Shown here: piece after piece, positions 13,001-42,900 of the stretch
How positions within the stretch are numbered: position 1 is the first letter of the stretch
Layout: every line of letters starts with the position of its first letter
Origin: Haemonchus contortus
Taxonomy: Eukaryota > Nematoda > Chromadorea > Rhabditida > Trichostrongylidae
Assembly: GCA_000469685.2 (NCBI GenBank)
Contig: LS997567.1
Span: forward strand, 38,405,005-38,469,004
Direction of reading: 5' to 3'
Length of the DNA: 64,000 nucleotides
The notes under the pieces: generated by a model
Told to the model about the DNA's origin: nothing
Databases searched by the model: none
The model's input: the letters and a program-made list of their open reading frames with translations, nothing else
Program-made: the position numbers and the translations under genes

Positions 13001-16000
13001 GAAAACTTTTTTTCTTTTTTGACTTACTGTCTTCGAGATTGTTTCATGACAATTAATGAGTTACTTTCTTAGTTTCTGGAGCAATGTTATCTACAATCAC
13101 CAGATTTGTTTGGTATTGGAGAAGGTACTCGTAAGAAAAAACGTAAGGTACGTGTAAGCTCACCGCTCTTTCGACAACTTGAGGGATCTTTTTTGTCTAA
13201 TACCCTTTTTACCTGCAGGTCTCGAAGCCACAAAAGTGGGGTGCTGCAGAACTGAGTCGAGGACGGGCTGACGAATTCGCACTTACTCCCATTGAAAAGC
13301 GAAAACCGTGTAAATACACGCTTCTACAAACTGATGTCAAGGCTGCTTTGGATCGATTGTGGAGAAGGGAAGACCCGAAATTATGCCATGGACAGTTTGG
13401 CTCACTAGTGGAGTTATGTAGAAGTAAAATTATGGTGAGTCGAAATCAATCTTGGGCTTCGAATTTGTTCATGGTTGCAAAGTGTAGTAAGCTGGCGCGC
13501 GCAGCGGATCGTGCTTGTACCTCTTAGACTAATAATTAACTAAGTTTTATTATGGAAGTAATAATTAGTGCAGATAGAGTTCACAAGGCAGAGATATGAG
13601 CAGTAACAAACGAATTATAATACTTCTCATAACAACTCGGAATACGGATAAAATGATATACACATAACACGATAGGAGAACATATATACAAAGGCAAGCA
13701 AAGGAAGCAATAGGTTGACAAACAGATCTTCGTGACTGGGGTAGCGCCCCAAGATGCAAGAGAAACATGCAGAGAAAGGCTACTGTCCTCCAGTCCGACG
13801 GCTGGCCGACTCCCTGACAGCTTCGATCGTCCTAGCTCCGCCCTGAAATAGATGAATCATGAAAGTCGCCTAACTATCTTCACACTTTCACAGCATCACT
13901 TACAGTGTGCCGTCCTCTTAAAAATTAGTGGTTTCAGAATCTCGCTCTTGGAACAATACATTTTGATCAGGGTTTCATGGCCACAGAGGTGAATGGGTTT
14001 TTTACACTTTTTAGATATTCAAATTAGGATTTTGTTATAAATGCATGTAACAATAGACATGGGGATAGTTTCGTTTCTCTTTCGATTTTTTTTCTTTCTT
14101 TCTGTTTCGCTTCTCCCGTTTTTTCATTCGGCGTATTCTGACCCTCCACTTCATAAAAGTAGTGCTTAAATCTATCAATTTTTTTCAGAAGATCTGGTCA
14201 GGTCTCGGTAGAAGTTTGAGGGATACAGCCAAGTCACCTTGCCCGCGTGGATCTGTAAGTCTTTTGCCAACCCCCTTCAATGATATGTCGTTCTTCTTTG
14301 CCCTGATTACTTTTTTTTTAAAGACCATCGCTATTATGGCGTCACGACCTCGTAACCACCTAATCTCTGATTTCAATGTAAGTGATCTATTCAATGCAAG
14401 TGAATGTATTGGATAACATAAATTTATTGATTTTAGCTGACGATGATAAAGCCTATGAACCCAATTGTGAGATGTGAAGCCGATATGGGTGAGCGAAGTT
14501 CTTATTGTTATCTTAGAATCTTAAATTCTCGAACATAAATGTAAAATTTTTCCATTTGTTGATTTCTTGTTTGTGAACAGTTATCTTTGCTGTCGAATAT
14601 TCATTCATTCATTATCCTGCCAGGTTTCTGCGGCATTTCTCTGATGATTCTCTGAATTTTCCAGGTCCTCTATTGGTTTCACTACAATCTACTTCACCTC
14701 TCCGTTTGTCTCGCCCCCGAGTCGAAGGCAGTCTGGAAAATGCATTTGCTCAATACGACAAAGGTGTTGACTGTATTCTGCAGCAAGTCAGCTGTGCAAG
14801 GTCGATCGTGGAGGTAAGTATTCGACTAAGTCGGATCCCTGGGGAAAGTTCGATCTCTGAGAAAATCCTGTTTCAGAACATCCGGTCCACAACGCACTGG
14901 TCACTTCACTTTTTGATGGATGCACAGTTATTCATGTTGGATATCCTCTATGAGATGTGGGAGTACACAGCTAGATCTGTGCAACTGGCTGTATTCAATG
15001 CGTATCAGTGCTCGCTTTGGGAGAAACATCATCAAATCGTACGCCATTTTTCCTTTCGTTACTGGTACATCAAAGAAGTTGATAGTCTTAAGGTAGATAT
15101 TTTTTAGTTTGATGCCCGAATGTATTGCCTGCTCTTTGAAATGAATGCGGCAGCTGCACTTTCGGCTAAAATCGACACTTGTTGCTCGTATATTAGAAGA
15201 TTCGAAGAATGGAATCGGTAAGTTAATAAGTAGTACTAATAACTTAGTTTTGATTCTTAACAGGAGTGTAATTTGAGAAACATGGTGTATAATCAATTTG
15301 TTACATTAATTTTAGGAAAACAAACAACTTTTCCTCGGTGTACAACCACGTTTACGGCCTTGCCTTGTCAATGATCAAGCTTGTACGTATGAATAACTGA
15401 TCTTTTTTTAAAAATGTGGTTCGTCTTTTGTTGTCGGGGTATTACTGTGTTACTGTTGTTCAGATTGCTATTCCTAACACTTTGAAACGTTTACAATCGA
15501 TGACACATTGGAACTCAAAAGCCCGTTCGACAAAATCGAGTGAAGAGATTTTTACTATTGATCTGATTCCATTCTTTCAAGTTGGCACCTGTTCACTCAC
15601 ATCGGATGATCTGGAAGTAAGTGCTTATTGTCGTGATTCCAGTTTCCTTAGGAATGATATAATCGCAATATTCTTGCGTTTAGATAGAAAAGCTTCTCGA
15701 TGGTAAAAAGTCGTTGGTTACGGATACACTTGAACATCTGCTGAGTTTCGAAGCAGCACAAGATAATAATCGCGTGGATTCGTTCTCGTTTCTGTTTCCC
15801 TCGCACTCTGTTGTGAAGCTGTGTCAGTCTCAGATTCAAAAGGAAGTGTCGTCGTACTACAACAAACACTTGGAGGTAAGAAGCATTGTATTGAATTTTT
15901 AAGTTTGCTTTCTTTTTCTACCAAGAATCAAGAGAATTTTTATAATAATTTTCAATAGGATGTAATGCATTTGGACCATCATCAACTGTCTATGCTATCT

Positions 16001-27900: not shown

Positions 27901-30900
27901 AAGAAAGGCATGGTTTGTAAAAGCTCAAGAACCGATTCCTACCAGCATAGCAGAAGCCTCTCATCATATCTCTTGTAGTACCAGGAGCACATTGACAGGT
28001 GCCTGCAACGCATGCATTGAATGGATCGACACATTGACTATCCTTCTCGCATGCTTGGCCATAGTGAGCCACTCGTGTACATTCCACACCATAGAGCTGT
28101 TGACCAACAGGGCATGCTGAAATAATCCGATCACGTCTCAGAAGCATTTGAAAGCAGTGGGTACGCAGCGCATGGGTGGAACTGGTGGCAAAGCTTGGCG
28201 AGCCTCAGCGCGCTTCTCATTGGTCAGGTGGTTGTAAGTGATGCTGTGAAAGTGTGAAGATAGTTAGGCGACTTTCATGATTCATCTATTTCAAGGCGGA
28301 GCTAGGACGATCGAAGCTGTCAGGGAGTCGGCCAGCCGTCGGACTGGAGGACAGTAGCCTTTCTCTGCATGTTTCTCTTGCATCTTGGGGCGCTACCCCA
28401 GTCACGAAGATCTGTTTGTCAACCTATTGCTTCCTTTGCTTGCCTTTGTATATATGTTCTCCTATCGTGTTATGTGTATATCATTTTATCCGTATTCCGA
28501 GTTGTTATGAGAAGTATTATAATTCGTTTGTTACTGCTCATATCTCTGCCTTGTGAACTCTATCTGCACTAATTATTACTTCCATAATAAAACTTAGTTA
28601 ATTATTAGTCTAAGAGGTACAAGCACGATCCGCTGCGCGCGCCAGCTTACTGGTAGCAGCGAGTGGTTTCGCTCCGGCTATAGGTTGGTAAACAGTCTCC
28701 AAGTGGTTTTTTGAATCTTCGTGCAGCTGTGTCGGCGTGGAAGGGCCCGTCCGCGCTCGACTGGCAGCTGCACGGAGTCAACACCAAAAAGACTAAGCTC
28801 GGTCGACTCTAAGAAATTCTAAAATATTCATGAATCAGCAGCATGTTTTCAATAAAATTCTGATTTAACAGATGTCGATAGTTTTTGGAGCTCCCATAGA
28901 ACCTTGGCCAGGGGCCACCTGCTAGTTGCAGATGGCAGTCGTTTGATTTTTTTTAGGATAGATTTAGACTAGGAGACCCGTGGAAGGGGGTCTAAAACTC
29001 GCGGAGTTGTCATGTGGGAAAAGAAGATAAGCCCGGGAAGAGTTTTGGAGTTTCGAGACGTATGTGAGAGTTCCCAGCCTGGTGAGTGTGTGGCCACACC
29101 TAAGTAGAATAGTACGGTAATGGAGTGTGCTGGGGTGCAGACTTTGGGGCGCCAAACAGTTGAAGAGGAAGCGTTGTTTTCGGAAACGCAGTTCGGTGCG
29201 AGCTTGATAGCAGGTCCGCGGACGTATGTATATATGGATCATGTGCACGTGTGTATAAATATGAAAGTCCTAGGCAAAATAAAAAAAAAAACAAAAAAAA
29301 AATAGTAGTACGACCTAGAAATTCGTTTTTTTTGGATGAAGCTCCTTAAGAGGTGTATTAGCAGCGGGAACTAAAGGCTAGGGAGCCCTGCTGGGCTGTA
29401 ACCAAAGTCAGGTTGAAGGTTCGCCCGCTAGGATTTTAACTGCTACAATATCGACACATATTTATCTCGAATTGGTCTCTTTCTCTATGCTAGTAATAAA
29501 CAAAGCCTTTAGTCATTTGAAAAGCCTTATGATGGGGGTAACGCAACTTTGGCTGCATATGGCGATGGTATCGAAAATCACCCGTCAATACTTGACAGCT
29601 CGAGATAATCGCCAGAACAAGGGGTTGTTGCATCTGGTCCCCGCCCCCTGGCGTACCATACGGGTCACAACGCGTATTACGCTTCCTTACTTGGCTTATT
29701 AGTTAGATGTGTTTACCACTGAGGCGGCGGTTCGTGCTCATCCTTCCTTGTCTAATCTAGTCTTTGCTAAGAGTGTTCATCCATCTACATGTCAACTTCC
29801 TTTTGATGCCCATCATGCCCATCGTTCCTCTGCATATCTATGACAACTTTCAGCCTATTATTCCTCTGTACTTCTACCAAGATTTTCGCTATTAGTTGCT
29901 GCCGTTGCCGCCCTTGTAGTACTCCTATTAATTTCGTATTCTCCTCTGATCTGCCCTCACCCCTCGAGATTCATATGAGGACCGTTCTAAACTTGAGTGG
30001 CGGTCCAAATGCATATGATACGATTTCTGGAAAATATTTGCTGCTGTTAGTTTCTATTCTAGTTATATTCTCTTGAACCGTATCCTTTTGCATATTCACT
30101 TTATGAGTCATTTTGGTATGAAGTCTGTTCGGCGGTGCGAGGGTGAGTCATGGCTCGGGTTACGGTAGCGGGCGCTGATTGGTCGGCCCCGCCCCTCGCG
30201 AATCCTATATGAGACCCTCTCATGTATCAGATCCTCATGCCTCGTATCAATTACTTGGTTTTGAAGTCTCACTTTCTATTTGCTCTCAATCATGGGACCA
30301 CCCCCAACTCGTGCTAGGGCTAGCTCTATAGATTCTAGGGCTGATGCCCTGACACCAAGCTCAGGCTCAGATGCTCCGCCGTCGCATAGTCTCGCCGATG
30401 CTTTGTCGTACCTGGACGACCGGGCTAGTGTCCGGGGTAGGGACGTAAAGGTTCTACGAGACGCTACGGTGGTAGCAATCTCCGAGGCCAAGGAGGAGGC
30501 CAAAGCTGACACCACCCGCCTCACTCATTCGATTAATGAGAATAATATCACTCTTCTTCGTGATCTAAACCAATCGTTTGCCACCGTTGGACAGCGTATT
30601 GACAACCTTCCAATGGTAGCAACGGTGAGCCCTGATGGACCACTACCGAGGATTGTGCCCTTTACAGGTTCGGGGGAAGATCCTATGCAGTTCTCCTTGT
30701 GGCTCCGCCGTTTGGAGGACGTCATGCGTATGAGGTCCACCACATGGACGACCCAGCAGAAAGCCTATTTCCTTACCGGATACCTGGATGGAGTGGCTAG
30801 GGAGAAGCTGGAGGAACTAACCGATGAGGAGCGGGACGATTATGGGGTCGTTGTGGAACACCTCAAGAGGACGTTTGAAGGCCCACAGCATCGGTACATG

Positions 30901-33900
30901 GCGCGCCAGGCGCTCGCCTCGTGTCAGCAGCAAGTTGCTGAATCTGCTTCCACGTTCGCGAACCGTCTGCTACTTTTGGTTAGGGCCGCTACGGCTGGTC
31001 AAGACCCAGCCAGCCAAAAGGATAGGGTGCTAGAAGAGTTTGTATCTAGACTCCGCCCCGACCTCCGTTATTACGTCAAGCTCGACAATCCATCCACGTT
31101 CGAGCAAGCGGTAGCGAGAGCGCAGATGGTGGAGCAGCTACTCAGGGAAGCTACAGCGGATCGACTCATGAGACCTTCTCTAGGGCCCCAGACGGTCGAG
31201 GTGAAGGCAACAGCCTTTCCTGGGAGGAAGGTCAGAGGGACCCAACGGAAACAGCCTTTCCACCAAGGCTCAACCCAACCATTTCAGCAGACAAGGAGGA
31301 ACCCGGTCCGGTCAAGATCCCCGTAACATGCTTTAATTGCGGCGGAGTAGGTCATCTTTCTCGGCAATGCCCGTCCCCTCGTAACCCACAAGGGAACACA
31401 GGTAAGTCTGCCACTCGTAGTTCTCCTCGTGGTCGTGATTTTTCGCGTTCGCCTCGCAATTACGTCTCACCTTCACGTTATGATCGGGACAGCGAGCTGT
31501 CGCGAGCCCGTGAACAGATCAATGCTCTATCTATTTCTCTACAAGAAAATAAGTCAGCCTTAGAAAAGTCGGACGCCAGAGTTACAGCCTTAGTCCGACG
31601 TAATGAAGAGCTGGCTAGATCCACCTATGGTCATGTTCCTTCTTCTTCATTTTCACTTCCTATGCCTCAGGTTAATCTTTTGCTTCCTTTGTCGATACTT
31701 TTGTGTGCAAGTTTTAGTGAGGCGCTTACCACTCCTGCGTGGCTCTGCCCGCACAGTCCGACAGATGCACTAGCTCGTATTCCTACTCATTACAATTGCT
31801 CTCAAGTAATTCCTCCTAGTGATGGGCCGCCTCGCCCCTTTTCTCTTCATATTTACCGTCCTAACACGCAACGATACGATACTCTAGCTTTTCTTTGCAA
31901 AATTGTTATTCAGTCTGTATCATATTCAGTTAATTTCTTTGGAGCTCGTTACGAGAACCATTCTGAGACTCACGCTCTTGTAACCCTGGAAGCTTGCAAA
32001 TTAATGGTCCAACATCATAGGTGTGAATTTGGTGACATGAAACAATCGGGCGATTTCTGGTCCTCTTCCAATACCATAACTATTGACTGGCCTTCAGCTC
32101 CCTTTGGGTGTTGCAAGGAGCATACCATTTCCGTCTCGAACTGTGTGCTCGTCCAAACCGTAATTCATATGCGCCACGGAGCTCCGTCTCCAGATTCACC
32201 CGTGGGCAACCTAGATAAGTGCTCCTATGAAACTGGTAACTGCATTCTCCGCGACGGTTCCATCCTATTATGGACTCCGAACAAATTGGAGTCGTGTCGA
32301 TTTACCCCGGTGATGAGAATGAAGGGACGCCAGCTTGGGGAGATATGGATTAGCGACTCCAAAGAGTTTGCACTATCCTGGAGGGATTCGAGCGAGCAGC
32401 TCCAGGATTGCGGGGTTAGCCTCATAGTTACAGATCAGGGTTATGCCATAGCGCCTATCACTCGAACAGCCCGTTTTGTCCCCTTGGCCGCTGTGGGATT
32501 GGTAACATCGAACCAGCTGTCAGCGCAACTCTTGGCAGTTGAGGGTACGGTTACCTCAGCCGTGTCCTCGCTTTTTCATCACGCTTTGTCTTCCCTGTGT
32601 GACAGAACGAACCTCCTTGCTTTTGCCCTCCACACCTCGCTAGCTGCTAACCCTACGCTGACCCTTCGCAAACTACTGGGACGAAGTGACATTGCAGCTT
32701 CTTCGCTGAGTGACGACCTAGTGCAAGTCCACCGGTGCATCGCGATCCCCCCGCGTAATTTCGAATTGATTCCGTTCAATGGTACGTGTTTCACCAAACC
32801 GCTTGTAAGAATCAACCCACCGTCGGGCTCTGCTGTGATTTCATTTGTCGATCCAACCACCATGGTCATTTCTCAGCAGGCGTCAGCAACAGAATGCTCA
32901 GCGGTTGGTCACTTCTATTTTGCTCACGAGAGTACTTACCTTAAATTTGATCCTTTGACTGGTGAGACCCACGCCCTGCCTCGGGGCAGTATTCGAGATG
33001 TGGGCATCCCTTCTAGCATCAACGCCTCGGCGCTAGCGTTACCACTGACGATCTTTCACAACCTCATTTTAACGAACCTCAGCGAATTGGTCCAAGATAA
33101 TCAGTGGCAAGAGATGTGGTCTGTGGTCTCTTCTGACCACTTCGCCCAGGTAAGGGTGGCAAGCGACCATGTTCTACCTTCTAAATCGAGCTCTCAGGCG
33201 TGGCCTTCGTTTTCTTTGTGGGCCGCGGTCTTTGGTTCCTGGTCAACCTTCGAGGTTTGGGTCGCCCTATGCTGTGCTATTACAACCATTCAAGTGGCTA
33301 AAGGGATCCTAGTACTTTACTTCACGCTATACTACCCTGGGTTATTGCTACGTTTCCAGGCACAGCCGGCGGCACCGCGTCAACGCGCAGCATCGAACCC
33401 GACGCGTAGTTCTCTTCCTGCCTTCACGGACATTTCTGAGGAACCTTTCTCTCCCAGTGCTCTAGAACTGGCCCGCGTGCAAATTGACGCGTCTTCCTCG
33501 TGGCCCCCTCGAGCGGTAATGGCTCCAATTAATGTGCTCTACCTGACAGACCCTGATCGCTTTTTCGTTGCTCAGATTCCAATCCGAGTCAACAACATTA
33601 GGGTGCTAGCTCTGGTGGATACGGGTGCGTCCATAACCATCACGTCAGTGGACACAGCACCCCTGTTCGGTGCCTTCAATCTTACGAAAAGCGACGTTAC
33701 GAGTGCGGTAGGTATGGCCGGAGTACCGGTTCAACTCTTAGGCTGTGCTCCCTTGTTGTTCGAGATAGGATCTCTATCATTCCGGCATCCTGTTTTCTTC
33801 ACCAAGTCTGCTTGCATCCCCGATGTAGCAGACGCTTATAACATCATTCTTGGCAACGACCTATTGTGCAGATTACCACCTTGGTCGATCGATTATGGTA

Positions 33901-36900
33901 ACCGCACTTTACGGTTCGCTGACCAGCATGTGAAGATTCTCTTCTCGACTCCCAGCGAAGCACCACCATCATCAGACCAGCCGGTACCAATCCGAGTTGC
34001 AGAGACGACAGTGCTCCCACCGTCAGCCGAATCCTTTGTGCCCTGCCAAGTCGATGGCACTGGTCTCGAACATCTGATGCTTGTGTCACAAAGCGGAAAA
34101 CTTTCTGAGAAGTCATTGATGGTCACTCCAGCGGTAGTGAATGTAGGTAGACCCCTCTTGTTGGTGGCCAATCCAACCCCACAGCCAGTGACACTCTACA
34201 AAGGTCAGCATATTTCGTCAGCGGTACCTTTGCAGTCCAGTGGATCGTCACAATCGATCTCGTCCTCGTTGGACTCTCCTTTATTGGTTGGCAACGTCTC
34301 TCCGAGGGTTGATGGCCCTGAATCCAAGAAACGATCTGGGGATTGCGAGATCGATTTATCCCAGGCAGAGGTGTCCGACGATGAACGAAGGGAACTGGCC
34401 CAATTGTTCTACGAATTTCGCGACAGAATCTCAACCGATTCTTATGACTTGGGCTCTTACGAGGCATCGGAGATAGTTATAAAAACTACTACGCAAACGC
34501 CGCCTGTCAATTTCCGCCCCCCTCGTATACCCGTAAAGTTCCAGAAGGAACTCGACGACCATATTAATAAACTGTTGCGGGCCGGCCGGATAGTCGAAAG
34601 TGACACTCCATGGGTTCATAACACGGTGCTGGTCAAAAAGAGGGATGGCTCTTTGAGGGTGTGTCTGGATTTCCGGCCGCTCAATAATGTCACCATTCCT
34701 GATCATTACCCGCTACCGCGCATCGAGGATATCCTGGCGAAGATTGCTGGGCACAAATTCTATACCACGCTGGATTTAGCCTCAGGTTACATGCAACTTC
34801 TGCTCTCACCAGATAGCCAAGAAAAGTGTGGTTGGGCCACCCATCGGGGAATCTATCAGTTTGTCTATTTACCCTTCGGTCTCAAGAACGCGGGCGCTTA
34901 CTTTTCGAGGGCGATGTCTCGAATTTTGGCCGGCTTGGAGGCGAACTGCTTGGCGTACTTGGACGACATCGTGGTATTCGACAGGGATTTTCCTAGTCAT
35001 CTGCAGTCGCTCAGAAAAGTATTTTATAGGTTTCGTTTGTATAATATCAAGGTTTCAGGGAAGAAGCTCACAGAAATAGCTCGGTCTCGTATTAACTTCC
35101 TAGGACATGAGATTTCCGGCTCATACTACACACCGGCAGAGAGGAATGTCCGCGCGATACGGGAGTTCCCTTCTCCATCATCCACCAAGGCCGTAAAGGG
35201 TTTTGTAGGTATGGCTAATTTCTTCCGCAAATTCATACCAAACTTCGCGTCTGTGGCTTCCCCGCTATACGCACTTTTGAAAGACAGAGCAAAGTTCATA
35301 TGGGGACCAGAACAGGAGGGCGCCTTCCAACAGCTCAAGTCTCTGCTAACCTCCAAACCGTGCCTAGCCTTCCCTCAGGACAAAGAATTTTTCATGCATA
35401 CAGACGGAAGTCAAATTGCGGTAGGAGCTGCACTGTTCCAGCACAGTTCTGACACTGACCATCAGCTCGTGGCGGTAGGGTATTTCAGCAAGGCTCTCTC
35501 AGAATCGCAACAAAAATGGAGCCCAACCCATATTGAACTCTTTGCTATCATCAGCGCGCTAAGGTTTTTCCGAACCACAATCTATGGCAACCATACTACT
35601 ATATTCTCGGATCACCGCCCGCTTACTTTCCTACTGAAACACAACAAGACACACGATAATCTGACGCGTTGGGTGGTCGAGCTGCAGGGTTACGATATCT
35701 CTATTGAGTATCTCAAGGGCTCTTCCAATGTCGTGGCAGACGCTCTGTCGCGGGCAGTTGCCCCGACGGTCCGTCTTCAGGATGATACACCAGAAGCCGA
35801 CGATATTGTTGAATTCCCGGTTAGCATTAATGCCATTCGGGCAAGTGCCTATTCTATCCGCCCTGTCGTTCGTTGCCTTGGCCCTCTGCAAGCTATAAGG
35901 CCGTACAACGTTCTCCAGGAGCAGAAAGCGGATCTCCTTTGCTCGGCAATTATGTCTTTCATTGAGTCGCAACGCTTTCCTCCCAATCTGAGTGAAGAAC
36001 AGCGTGCCACATGGTTAGCGATCGCCGAGAAGTGCGTGATCCGGAAAAACGGATGTCTCTATTACAATGACCACCAAAACGACACCACGCCTTTTCGTTT
36101 CGAGCGTCTCGTAGTGCCGGACAGGCTCAAGGAGCCCATCTTTCTGGCCTTTCATTCAAGTCCTTCGTCTGGTGGCCACTTTAACTGGAGAAAGACCTTG
36201 GCTAAAATTGCTCGCAAGTATTTTTGGCCCCACATGGCAGAGGATATTTTCGCCCTGGTCCGTTCCTGTGACGCATGTCAGCGGAAGCGCCCCAATCCAG
36301 CAAATCAGGAATTACTTATACCAGTCACTAGTGGCGCGATCTTTGACAAGGTGTACGTGGATTTGACAGGCCCTCTCCACCCGTCGGAAGCTGGCAATAA
36401 ATACATCTTGGCCATGATTGATCACTTTTCCAAATACGTCATCGCAACGCCGCTTCCTGATTGCACAGCGATCACGGTAGCACGAGCCATAGTCTCAGAG
36501 TGTATCTTGAAATTTGGCGTCATGACCCAACTAATATCCGATAATGCTTCATACTTCAAGGGCGAAATCATGAACGAGATCGGACGCTTCTTAAGAATAC
36601 ATAGATATTTTTGTACACCACACCACCATGAAGGCAATGGCGCCTGTGAGCGCATCTTTGCTACTTTCCATCCTATGTTGCGAACCTACATTCACGAAAA
36701 TCAGTTGGATTGGGATGAATACGTGAATGCGTGTGCTTTTATGTACAACACCTCTGTCCACTCTAGTATCAATAACACTCCATTCTTTATGATGTTCGGA
36801 CGCGACCCCGTATTCAACATTGATCTACTGATCAAGCAAAATTTAGAGCACCACTTCTCCTTTTCGGACGATTCGAGGCTTTATCTACAGAATTTGGTTG

Positions 36901-39900: not shown

Positions 39901-42900
39901 GGTCGAAACGAAGATTAGCTAAGATTTGCAATGCCGCTTGCTCGGCATTGGCCGCCGTTAATGCAGCAGGGGATGACAAGCACACGCACTGGGACGTGGC
40001 TTTTGTGGTCACCCCGGTTTGGCATCCCCTTCGTATTCAAATAACGCTGAGGGATATGGCATCAGAGGCTGGATGGTCAACTGGCCGACACGCGATCCTA
40101 TGGGTGCCGGGATCTTTGAACCTCATTAAAATGAAGGTGGTAGCGGTAGAAGCGAATTCTCCGCGCAAAGAGGTCAGAGTCGTCCTGCAGGCCTTCCCAT
40201 GGTCACACGAACCGCTTAAGCGACTGATTCATCGGTTCGGACGCGATGTACCAGGAACCCGAGCCTTCGACGTATGCGTCCGTCTCGGCAAATCCACAAC
40301 GTCGGCGAACCCGGTGTATGATATTGTGTCGCGGATGGACGTTTTCGACAATGTGATGCCGCGCACCCTGGCTGATCAGCTGATCACCATCCTCTATGCG
40401 AATCAGCCACTGGGCACTAGCGATGAGCCTCACCTTAAGTCTCTTCCACCACCGTCAGATGAGGAACGCTTCTTCCGGGTTAAAGGACGTTCAGTAGCAC
40501 TCACGCCCGACCAACGGGACGCAGTTCGTGTCGGAACCGGGAAAATTCCCTTGGTGGCCATACAGGCTGCGTTCGGAACCGGAAAGACCCTCGTCGGAGC
40601 CATAATAGCTGCGTTACTATCTGGGGACAGCGAGACGATAGTAATAGTGACGACCTCAACTAACGCAGCTGTAGCTCAATTCACGGACACATTACTCTCT
40701 CTTGAGGACTTTCCTCAAATGCGAGTGGTGCGGCATATTTCTGACACAGCGGCGGCCGATAACTTGACTCCGACTCCTGTCGACCTTAGTAAGGTATTGA
40801 AGTCGCTGGGAAGTGAATTCAAGGACCAACTGTCGGAGGAAGATCTCGAGAAGTGCGAGCTGTTTAAAGGGTACCGCGACATTATTGAAAGCTATATGGA
40901 GCATCCGGAAGCGATCCCCAATATGACGGATGACCAGAAGGACGAGTATGAGATAGCGGAGCAGTACGTTTCGCGTACGCTCAAGCGCATGGTGAAGATC
41001 ATGTTCAGGGTACGGCGTCCTTCGGTCATCTGCATGACAACATCATCCCTTTTGAATTCCACCGGTCGCAAGGGGATTTTCAAGTCCTATATTCGCGACT
41101 TCAGGGTAGTCATCGGGGACGAGGCGTCGCAGATCCCGGAGCCGGCTCTCCTCTCGATCGCTAGCCGCCTTCCGCACGCTCGCCAGGTTTACATAGGGGA
41201 CGTGCACCAGCTCGCTCCGCACGTCAAATGCCCACCTACGGCCAACCCAGCCGTCCACGGAGCGCGCAGTGTCATGGACCTGCTCCTCCACGCCCCAGCA
41301 GTACCCGTAGCGCCGCTCATCACCACCTTCCGCGCTCACCCGGCACTGCTGGCTCTTCCCAACCGCATCGCATACGATGGGCAGCTGGTCAGCGGGACCC
41401 CCGCGGAGGCTCGTAGCCTCCTTGTGTCGAGAATGTTCTTCCCGACTCCAGGCGTCCCGTTTATCTTTGTAGATGTGGCGGGCAAATCGGCGCAGGCCCC
41501 TAGTATGTCCCATTTTAATGAAAATGAAATTTCAGCATGTTTAGGTGTTTTGCGCAAGCTCCTGGGATTGGGTATCGCTCCGCAGGACATCTGCGTGATT
41601 ACCTTTTACAGGGAGCAGTATCGCCAGATGAGGCCGCACGCCGAGCAGTACAACGTCGAGCTCACCACCGTGGACTCCGTCCAGGGCCGAGAGAAAGAGG
41701 TTGTTCTTTTGCTCACTACAAAAACTAATTTTAATCCAGATGCGGACACCTTCATCAACGACTACCGGCGCCTAAATGTGGCTACCACCCGCTGCCGCCA
41801 TGGCCAGTTCGTTTTTGGGCATGCGAAATCGCTCCGGGCACTGCCGACATGGAACACCCTGCTGCAATGGGCTTATTCGCTCCGCGCCGTCGTCACTCAA
41901 TCGCAAGTACTCCGGTACTTTGAACCGTGAGCATTTGTTCGGTGAGCCACTTTTATCCTTCACCGCCGTATGCCAGCACGTTTGAAGTCCGGGTCGGACT
42001 TCGGGTAAAGAGGGGAGGTGTAAGTGATGCTGTGAAAGTGTGAAGATAGTTAGGCGACTTTCATGATTCATCTATTTCAAGGCGGAGCTAGGACGATCGA
42101 AGCTGTCAGGGAGTCGGCCAGCCGTCGGACTGGAGGACAGTAGCCTTTCTCTGCATGTTTCTCTTGCATCTTGGGGCGCTACCCCAGTCACGAAGATCTG
42201 TTTGTCAACCTATTGCTTCCTTTGCTTGCCTTTGTATATATGTTCTCCTATCGTGTTATGTGTATATCATTTTATCCGTATTCCGAGTTGTTATGAGAAG
42301 TATTATAATTCGTTTGTTACTGCTCATATCTCTGCCTTGTGAACTCTATCTGCACTAATTATTACTTCCATAATAAAACTTAGTTAATTATTAGTCTAAG
42401 AGGTACAAGCACGATCCGCTGCGCGCGCCAGCTTACTTGGTTACGGAGACCAATCAGAGGTACACTGAGGCACGACAGCTCCGCCTCCCGTTCGTGATGC
42501 GCTCACGCACCCGAATCATTCGAGAAATCATGGAAAATAATGTGCAAAATGATAAAAAAGTAGAAAAACTCTTTATGTGGGACGAAAAGAAGAAAGTAGG
42601 TCAACAATAAATAAAGTGTTGACGCAAAGCTGCTTAAATCGAACAGGCAGTGTTTTTAGAGGTCGAAACGAGCGCAACTCACGCACTACGCATTCCCCAT
42701 CCACAATACTTCCACCCCAACATTCGCATCTTCCATCCCGACACAACAAGGGCGGCTTGCAATCCCGTTGACAGGTGTCGCCGATCTTTGCTGGTGCTGA
42801 AACAGGTCATCACGTACAATCTAATATGAAAAAATTCCGAAAAAAAAATCAAGAAAAGTAATTTAATGAATAAATAAAAAGTAACTATAGATGAAATGGT

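What the first reader, a model, noticed from the sequence alone, without database searches (positions are those of the whole stretch)
28233..42437. An intact 14.2-kb gypsy-type LTR element carrying its own SF1 helicase gene
Both LTRs, primer site, polypurine tract and target duplication are visible. The internal frames encode Gag, an envelope-like module, PR-RT-RH-IN and, between pol and the 3' LTR, an uninterrupted 1,255-codon Upf1/MOV10-type helicase. Ty3/gypsy elements usually run 5-9 kb and encode no helicase. A helicase with intact NTPase and motif V/VI residues bounded by the LTRs implies that it is mobilised and maintained as an element gene.
Basis: partly seen in the sequence, partly recalled or inferred. 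Interest (0 to 1): 0.92.

Follow-up and report, generated by a model that had tools for sequence, protein, structure and literature searches.

The report
Retrovirus-like nematode element with own helicase
A virus-like jumping gene in a parasitic roundworm carries, besides its usual copying genes and a virus-type membrane-fusion module, its own RNA-helicase gene; the helicase is shared by a large, old family of such elements in related worms and looks maintained by selection.

Summary
The element is real. Window 28233-42437 is a 14.2-kb Ty3/gypsy element with identical 419-bp LTRs, a 4-bp target duplication, a primer site matching tRNA-Met, a polypurine tract, gag, a fusion-glycoprotein-like module, PR-RT-RH-IN and a 1,255-codon UPF1-type helicase ORF between IN and the 3' LTR. 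It is not a one-off capture. In this genome 39 of 49 pol loci at or above 43% protein identity have a helicase hit downstream on the same strand; 0 of 10 more distant pols do. Both exceptions that I opened also hold helicase sequence. In gene models of three other strongylid species the helicase is joined to integrase. Element-type helicases form one clade (100/100). dN/dS between two copies with open helicase frames is 0.10, as low as for pol. Two corrections: this copy and its twin have gag out of frame with the rest, whereas 5 of 6 sister copies have it in frame, so 'intact' is doubtful; and the helicase resembles UPF1 without its zinc-rich CH domain. I infer a trans-acting RNA/RNP remodelling protein that protects or handles the long genomic RNA. 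Extra find: three tandem relatives with altered Walker B motifs, possibly co-opted by the host.

The parts
28229..28232 (.). 5' target-site duplication TGGT
   Evidence: 13 of 13 loci examined show matching 4-mers
28233..28651 (+). 5' LTR, 419 bp, TGTA...TACT
28651..28666 (+). primer binding site, complementary to a tRNA-Met 3' end plus CCA
   Evidence: that the tRNA is the initiator type is my reading of its sequence from recalled features
28652..30291 (+). long untranslated leader (about 89% identical to most sister copies)
30292..31326 (+). gag (capsid-like); in this copy out of frame with the downstream ORF
31326..31376 (+). nucleocapsid CCHC zinc knuckle
31647..33450 (+). class III viral fusion glycoprotein-like module between NC and protease (approximate limits)
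   Evidence: (sibling P0044 above the PF24664 cut-off, window piece below it); model pLDDT only 58.9
33552..33940 (+). aspartic protease (approximate)
   Evidence: sequence LALVDTGAS read; Pfam protease matches in siblings
34632..35114 (+). reverse transcriptase
   Evidence: PF00078
35379..35693 (+). RNase H
   Evidence: PF17917
36114..36626 (+). integrase zinc-binding and core domains
   Evidence: PF17921, PF00665
37386..38162 (+). spacer between pol stop and helicase ATG; holds one splice-acceptor-like TTTCAG at 37851-37856
   Evidence: such a six-base motif is not rare by chance, and its use is not shown
38163..41930 (+). UPF1-type superfamily 1 helicase ORF, 1,255 codons plus stop
41984..42002 (+). 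hairpin GAAGTCCG-GGT-CGGACTTC just 5' of the polypurine tract; a like hairpin stands in the three other families checked
42007..42018 (+). polypurine tract
42019..42437 (+). 3' LTR, identical to the 5' LTR
42438..42441 (.). 3' target-site duplication TGGT

Best explanation
This is one copy of a family in a large, old clade of retrovirus-like Ty3/gypsy elements of strongylid nematodes. Shown: Gag, NC, a fusogen-like module, protease, RT, RNase H and integrase lie in one polyprotein order (gag in frame with NC in 5 of 6 sister copies), and a separate UPF1-type helicase gene follows integrase; the helicase is linked to this pol clade and is under purifying selection. Inferred: the helicase is made from its own spliced or SL-trans-spliced mRNA, is a diffusible trans-acting protein, and works as an ATP-driven RNA/RNP remodeller on the element's long (about 13.8 kb), multi-ORF genomic RNA. 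Its most likely benefit is to keep that RNA from host UPF1-type decay and small-RNA surveillance while it is translated and packaged. My estimates: anatomy 0.95, selected element gene 0.9, this particular benefit 0.35.
Against: No transcript, protein or activity was seen. Copies that lost gag-pol moved with a broken helicase, so either it is supplied in trans or it is not needed for every jump. Nothing here shows contact with NMD or RNAi factors. The acceptor-like motifs before the helicase are weak evidence: a script found TTYCAG in the spacer of 3 of 4 families (the fourth has TTACAG by eye), at very different distances from the ATG, and about 0.4 per spacer is expected by chance. The dN/dS is a simple Nei-Gojobori count on few open copies, and synonymous sites are saturated between families. 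The pol-less copies' helicases still score below 1 against each other (0.22-0.38), since they share most of their history with the element lineage. A structural or packaging role is equally compatible.
Confidence: 0.6

Rival explanations
1. Replicative helicase: the enzyme unwinds structured template RNA or displaces strands for the element's RT, needed because the genome is unusually long, as RNA viruses with longer genomes carry helicases (recalled).
Against: Encoded in a separate ORF rather than in the polyprotein, so not obviously packaged with RT; best match is UPF1, not a viral replicase helicase.
Confidence: 0.25
2. RNA export or packaging factor, a functional analogue of CERV of the C. 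elegans element Cer1, which is encoded in the same place and is required for export of unspliced genomic RNA.
For: Same position between pol and 3' LTR; CERV comes from a spliced mRNA (PMC10309623, passages read).
Against: No sequence link to CERV was tested; conserved ATPase motifs argue for catalysis, which the passages read do not report for CERV.
Confidence: 0.15
3. One-off capture of a host gene with no role: a passenger.
For: Only 3 of 12 aligned copies keep an open helicase frame.
Against: Linkage across the pol clade; one old clade with 6 genera in the tree and 8 among the hits; dN/dS about 0.1.
Confidence: 0.02
4. Assembly chimera or an unrelated element nested between pol and LTR.
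For: None found.
Against: Same order in sister copies at independent sites with their own 4-bp TSDs and in other species' records.
Confidence: 0.01

Closest known systems
Cer1 of C. elegans (Ty3/gypsy) with CERV
   Same: Gypsy element of a rhabditine nematode with an extra gene between pol and 3' LTR, expressed from a spliced mRNA and needed for export of the element's RNA (PMC10309623, passages read)
   Different: The passages do not describe CERV as a helicase; Cer1 gRNA is about 8.4 kb; its extra ORF does not resemble Env proteins
SF1 helicase-bearing insect retrotransposons (TRAS and Jockey LINEs; two Ty1/copia fusions)
   Same: Retrotransposons that carry an SF1 helicase with conserved motifs, with suggested roles in RNA quality control or silencing suppression (PMC5563155 and PMC6338049, passages read)
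   Different: Those are virga-like viral helicases fused to LINE or copia proteins; here a UPF1-type helicase in a separate gene of an LTR element, in nematodes
Envelope-capturing LTR elements such as errantiviruses and Anakin (chuvirus envelope)
   Same: LTR element with a captured fusion glycoprotein (PMC12440569, abstract and passages read)
   Different: In those the envelope is an extra gene acquired from a virus (env after pol is recalled for errantiviruses); here the module sits inside Gag-Pol between NC and protease, and a helicase gene is added
UPF1 / SMG-2 host helicase
   Same: Same helicase core fold; best sequence and fold match
   Different: Separate, long-branched clade; no conserved zinc-ligand-rich CH domain in the N-terminal part

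Membership tests
Metaviridae / Ty3-gypsy LTR element | paired LTRs, tRNA primer site, polypurine tract, short TSD | tested here: met
Metaviridae / Ty3-gypsy LTR element | order PR-RT-RH-IN, integrase after RNase H | tested here: met
   with protease placed
Metaviridae / Ty3-gypsy LTR element | RT groups with gypsy in a tree | not tested
   no RT tree was built; placement rests on domain order and Pfam models
UPF1-type SF1 helicase | SF1 motifs I, II, III, IV, V, VI | tested here: met
UPF1-type SF1 helicase | helicase core fold closest to UPF1 | tested here: met
UPF1 proper (NMD factor) | N-terminal zinc-binding CH domain | tested here: not met
   only 4 Cys/His conserved in 75% or more of the rows within model residues 1-352 of the 24-row alignment, against about a dozen zinc ligands recalled for the CH domain; no Pfam match there
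MOV10-type helicase | closest to MOV10 rather than UPF1 | tested here: inconclusive
   no MOV10 chain appears in the rows; absence from the list is not exclusion
virga-like viral SF1 helicase (insect LINE type) | best Pfam match Viral_helicase1 (PF01443) | tested here: not met
   AAA_12/AAA_11 best and PF01443 not listed for the window ORF at E<=0.01; P0013 scores 23.6 bits for PF01443 (cut-off 21) against 115 for AAA_12
class III viral fusion glycoprotein | profile match above cut-off | tested here: inconclusive
   sibling P0044 29 bits, cut-off 27; P0046 22.8 and window piece 15.3 below it; P0048 no match listed
class III viral fusion glycoprotein | fold match to gB / mononegavirus glycoproteins | tested here: inconclusive
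   Foldseek E 1e-14 to HSV gB and 2e-24 to Beihai rhabdo-like virus 3 glycoprotein, but TM 0.25-0.30 for these and pLDDT 58.9
Errantivirus-like gypsy | env gene after pol | tested here: not met
   fusion-like module precedes protease; the gene after pol is the helicase
Cer1-type element | gene after pol homologous to CERV | not tested
   CERV sequence not fetched

The most novel reading that the evidence does not exclude
Strongylid nematodes host an old clade of enveloped retroviruses of a new build, with the fusion protein inside Gag-Pol and a UPF1-like helicase as a core gene that defends or runs the long RNA genome against host RNA surveillance; the host has in turn co-opted helicase copies with an altered Walker B motif (the C2:28.42-28.48 Mb cluster), possibly as dominant-negative restriction factors.
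Probability: 0.3. Interest if true: 0.92.

Novelty: new variant of a known kind. Interest (0 to 1): 0.8.

Why it matters
A UPF1-type helicase as a stable gene of LTR retroelements would be the first such case that I know of (searches found none in the open-access library; subscription journals and repeat databases were not searched). It gives a natural test of why UPF1-like enzymes recur at the border between RNA decay and retroelements: is the element enzyme a weapon, a shield or a replication part? It also adds a probable fusion-protein module in an unusual place, and a candidate host co-option of a retroelement enzyme with a changed catalytic motif, in a major parasite of livestock.

Tried and rejected
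Splicing as the origin of the gag-pol-less derivatives: the shared breakpoint near leader base 771 looked like a donor, but the junctions have no GT-AG and show short homologies (AAGGTTC; a pyrimidine-rich stretch), so I read them as deletions, probably by template switching. A 51-bp gap in the spacer that looked like a small intron is explained by a local repeat. Programmed -1 frameshifting between gag and pol: not needed, since 5 of 6 sister copies have one frame; it is not excluded for this pair. Selection for the helicase in pol-less copies: rejected, since the 5 aligned copies that lack gag-pol all have broken helicases. Deep dN/dS between families: synonymous sites saturated. Fold of helicase residues 240-590: that part was not modelled alone, so no claim. 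Failed or misdirected scripts: one search read many loci as one file and was redone; one search built a tree but stopped before showing it and was redone.

Results against my reading: 10 of 49 related pol loci had no helicase hit; I opened 2 of these 10, and both held helicase sequence, one truncated and one diverged and frame-broken; 8 remain unopened. 47 of 86 helicase loci had no pol hit nearby: some have lost pol, for others pol may have gone unscored (65 of 927 pol candidates and 86 of 502 helicase candidates were scored). One pair on the wrong side or strand was counted against 39 in the expected order; one search found none. The database-wide protein searches scored about 8,000 candidates each, so absence of the helicase outside strongylids is weak evidence; the C. 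brenneri model P0048 has the fusion-like module and pol but no helicase in the model, and its downstream DNA was not seen. The pol comparison for C5:38.89 used 1,015 of 1,277 codons. Rows dropped: one search kept 51 proteins by coverage; one search removed 14 long-branched, redundant or near-identical rows and 41 remained; C2a (L027) was lost to the coverage filter, and the fetched family-2 frame was left out because P0004 stands for it.
Full report
What is there. The two LTRs (28233-28651, 42019-42437) are identical over 419 bp, the flanks carry TGGT on both sides, the primer site matches 13 encoded 3'-end bases of tRNA-Met genes plus the added CCA, and a purine tract ends at the 3' LTR. Pfam gives a weak Ty3 capsid match (below the curated cut-off), a CCHC knuckle, RT, RNase H, integrase and, in ORF3, AAA_11 and AAA_12. 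The helicase ORF is 1,255 codons from the first ATG.

Species. The helicase is 99% identical over its matched part to a protein named 'regulator of nonsense transcripts [Haemonchus contortus]', so the host is very probably H. contortus. 'Strongylid' for the other genera is recalled; the taxonomy look-up resolved Strongylida only to the order Rhabditida.

How intact. I examined 16 same-family loci. All 13 whose LTR pairs I compared have matching 4-bp TSDs, and 11 of 13 pairs differ by 4 or fewer substitutions, so the family has probably been active recently. The window copy has a twin at C6:3.91 Mb. In both, gag is out of frame with NC-Env-Pol, while in 5 of 6 sister copies holding gag it is in frame with NC (the sixth has an early stop); the sister at C6:37.07 has an uninterrupted frame of 2,373 codons over pol.

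Is the helicase an element gene? Six of six same-family loci that keep RNase H-integrase also keep helicase sequence. I paired pol hits with helicase hits by coordinates: by identity of pol to the window's, 5 of 6 (90-100%), 15 of 17 (70-89%), 14 of 18 (55-69%), 5 of 8 (43-54%) and 0 of 10 (below 43%) have a helicase hit downstream on the same strand within 9 kb, with one pair on the wrong side or strand; the DNA-based pairing gave 33 of 36 with no wrong-side pair. I opened two of the ten exceptions at or above 43%, and both have helicase sequence after integrase. Three other families read directly show the same order: C3:23.52, C6:15.32, with an open RT-to-integrase frame and an open 1,279-codon helicase frame, and C6:20.98. 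In other species, gene models P0007 (Oesophagostomum dentatum), P0013 (Heligmosomoides polygyrus) and P0029 (Ancylostoma duodenale) join integrase and helicase, and P0015 (O. dentatum) joins zinc knuckle, RNase H and helicase. The 28 element-type rows, two of them from the C2 cluster below, form one clade against 13 other SF1 helicases (100/100); 6 genera are in that clade, and 8 are among the hits.

Selection. Between the window and C3:5.07, both with open helicase frames, there are 51 synonymous and 15 non-synonymous differences, ratio 0.096, binomial p 1e-18. Window against the other open copy, its twin, gives 0.20 on only 8 differences. The five copies without gag-pol give 0.22-0.38 against each other; one such pair is still far below neutral (p 1e-10), but has relatively more non-synonymous change than the open pair (chi-square p 2e-5). 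Pol gives 0.07-0.13, apart from the twin pair with a single difference, and gag 0.08-0.40; the fusion module gives 0.02-0.32, apart from the twin pair (4 differences). The helicase is thus constrained about as strongly as pol. These are pairwise counts on related copies, not independent tests.

Derivatives. Five loci have LTR sequence and a near-full helicase but have lost gag-pol: C5:15.92, C5:10.81, C5:42.02, C2:12.92 and C4:9.74. C5:42.02 and C2:12.92 share the same deletion and the same helicase frameshifts but stand at different sites with different TSDs, so they moved, after both losses, with proteins supplied by other copies. The helicase is therefore at least not required in cis. C5:15.92, C4:9.74 and C2:17.25 share another junction.

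The fusion-like module. Between NC and protease lies a hydrophobic stretch that reads like a signal peptide and a Cys-containing region (by eye). A sibling protein passes the Pfam cut-off for Monjiviricetes_fusion (29 bits, cut-off 27), the window piece does not (15.3). A low-confidence model (pLDDT 58.9) matches herpesvirus gB (E 1e-14) and rhabdo-like and nyami-like glycoproteins, among them those of Shayang ascaridia galli virus 2 and Socyvirus heteroderae. The same module in the same place is found in a C. brenneri polyprotein.

How it works. The helicase is a separate, catalytically equipped gene that need not act in cis. I favour a role in protecting or remodelling the long genomic RNA against host decay and silencing, because UPF1 and MOV10 relatives act on retroelement RNA (MOV10 as an inhibitor of retrotransposition: PMC3475670, listing and start of abstract seen; the rest recalled), and a multi-ORF 13.8-kb RNA is an expected target of such surveillance (recalled). 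A replicative role and an export role like that of Cer1 CERV are serious rivals.

Literature. Passages of PMC5563155 and PMC6338049 describe virga-like SF1 helicases in insect LINEs and two copia fusions; passages of PMC10309623 describe Cer1 CERV; the abstract and passages of PMC12440569 mention chuvirus-envelope capture; a term search in PMC13195028 found no mention of helicase. Nine library searches listed no paper whose title or abstract start reports a UPF1-type helicase in LTR elements; most listed papers were not opened.

Side finding. On C2 at 28.42-28.48 Mb three tandem helicase ORFs (1,164-1,171 codons) stand without a pol hit within 9 kb. In L027 no integrase lies in the 2.5 kb upstream and no flanking repeat was found; the other two stretches begin under 0.7 kb upstream, so they test this less well. 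L027 and L028 are alike over 5.4 kb including flanks, as in segmental duplication; L029 is alike mainly over the ORF. Two of the three were in the tree and fall inside the element helicase clade, their place within it unresolved and their branch long. All three have DNASH in place of DEASQ and lack the QGRE of motif V, yet dN/dS between them is 0.26-0.31. This is what a co-opted, perhaps inactive, helicase would look like.

Noticed in passing
L027, L028, L029 (C2:28.42-28.48 Mb of the same genome): Three tandem relatives of the element helicase with Walker B DEAS changed to DNAS and motif V degraded, but dN/dS 0.26-0.31 between them: candidate host co-option of an inactive helicase. No integrase or flanking repeat in the L027 stretch. 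In L027 the conserved part starts before the first in-frame ATG, so an upstream exon is likely.
   Followed up: partly
window 41984-42002; L025, L026, L030: A hairpin AGTCCG-loop-CGGACT stands directly before the polypurine tract in the four families checked; the diverged copy L024 has a variant of it. Role unknown (plus-strand priming, packaging or RNA 3' processing are guesses).
   Followed up: partly
window 31647-33450: Class III-fusogen-like module inside Gag-Pol, between NC and protease, shared with a C. brenneri polyprotein (P0048).
   Followed up: partly
window 13486-13904, minus strand: A near-identical LTR of the same family with no partner LTR nearby in the hit list, probably a solo LTR, 14 kb from the element.
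   Followed up: no
L015/L008 (C5:42.02 Mb): 5' and 3' LTRs differ by 21 substitutions although the TSD matches, while the sister C2:12.92 has identical LTRs; suggests a chimeric LTR from template switching or gene conversion.
   Followed up: no
C1:17.67-17.83 Mb, L033: The 13-base primer complement occurs in long runs at about 142-bp spacing; a 701-base piece held five tRNA-Met genes, so tandem arrays of the primer tRNA are likely.
   Followed up: partly
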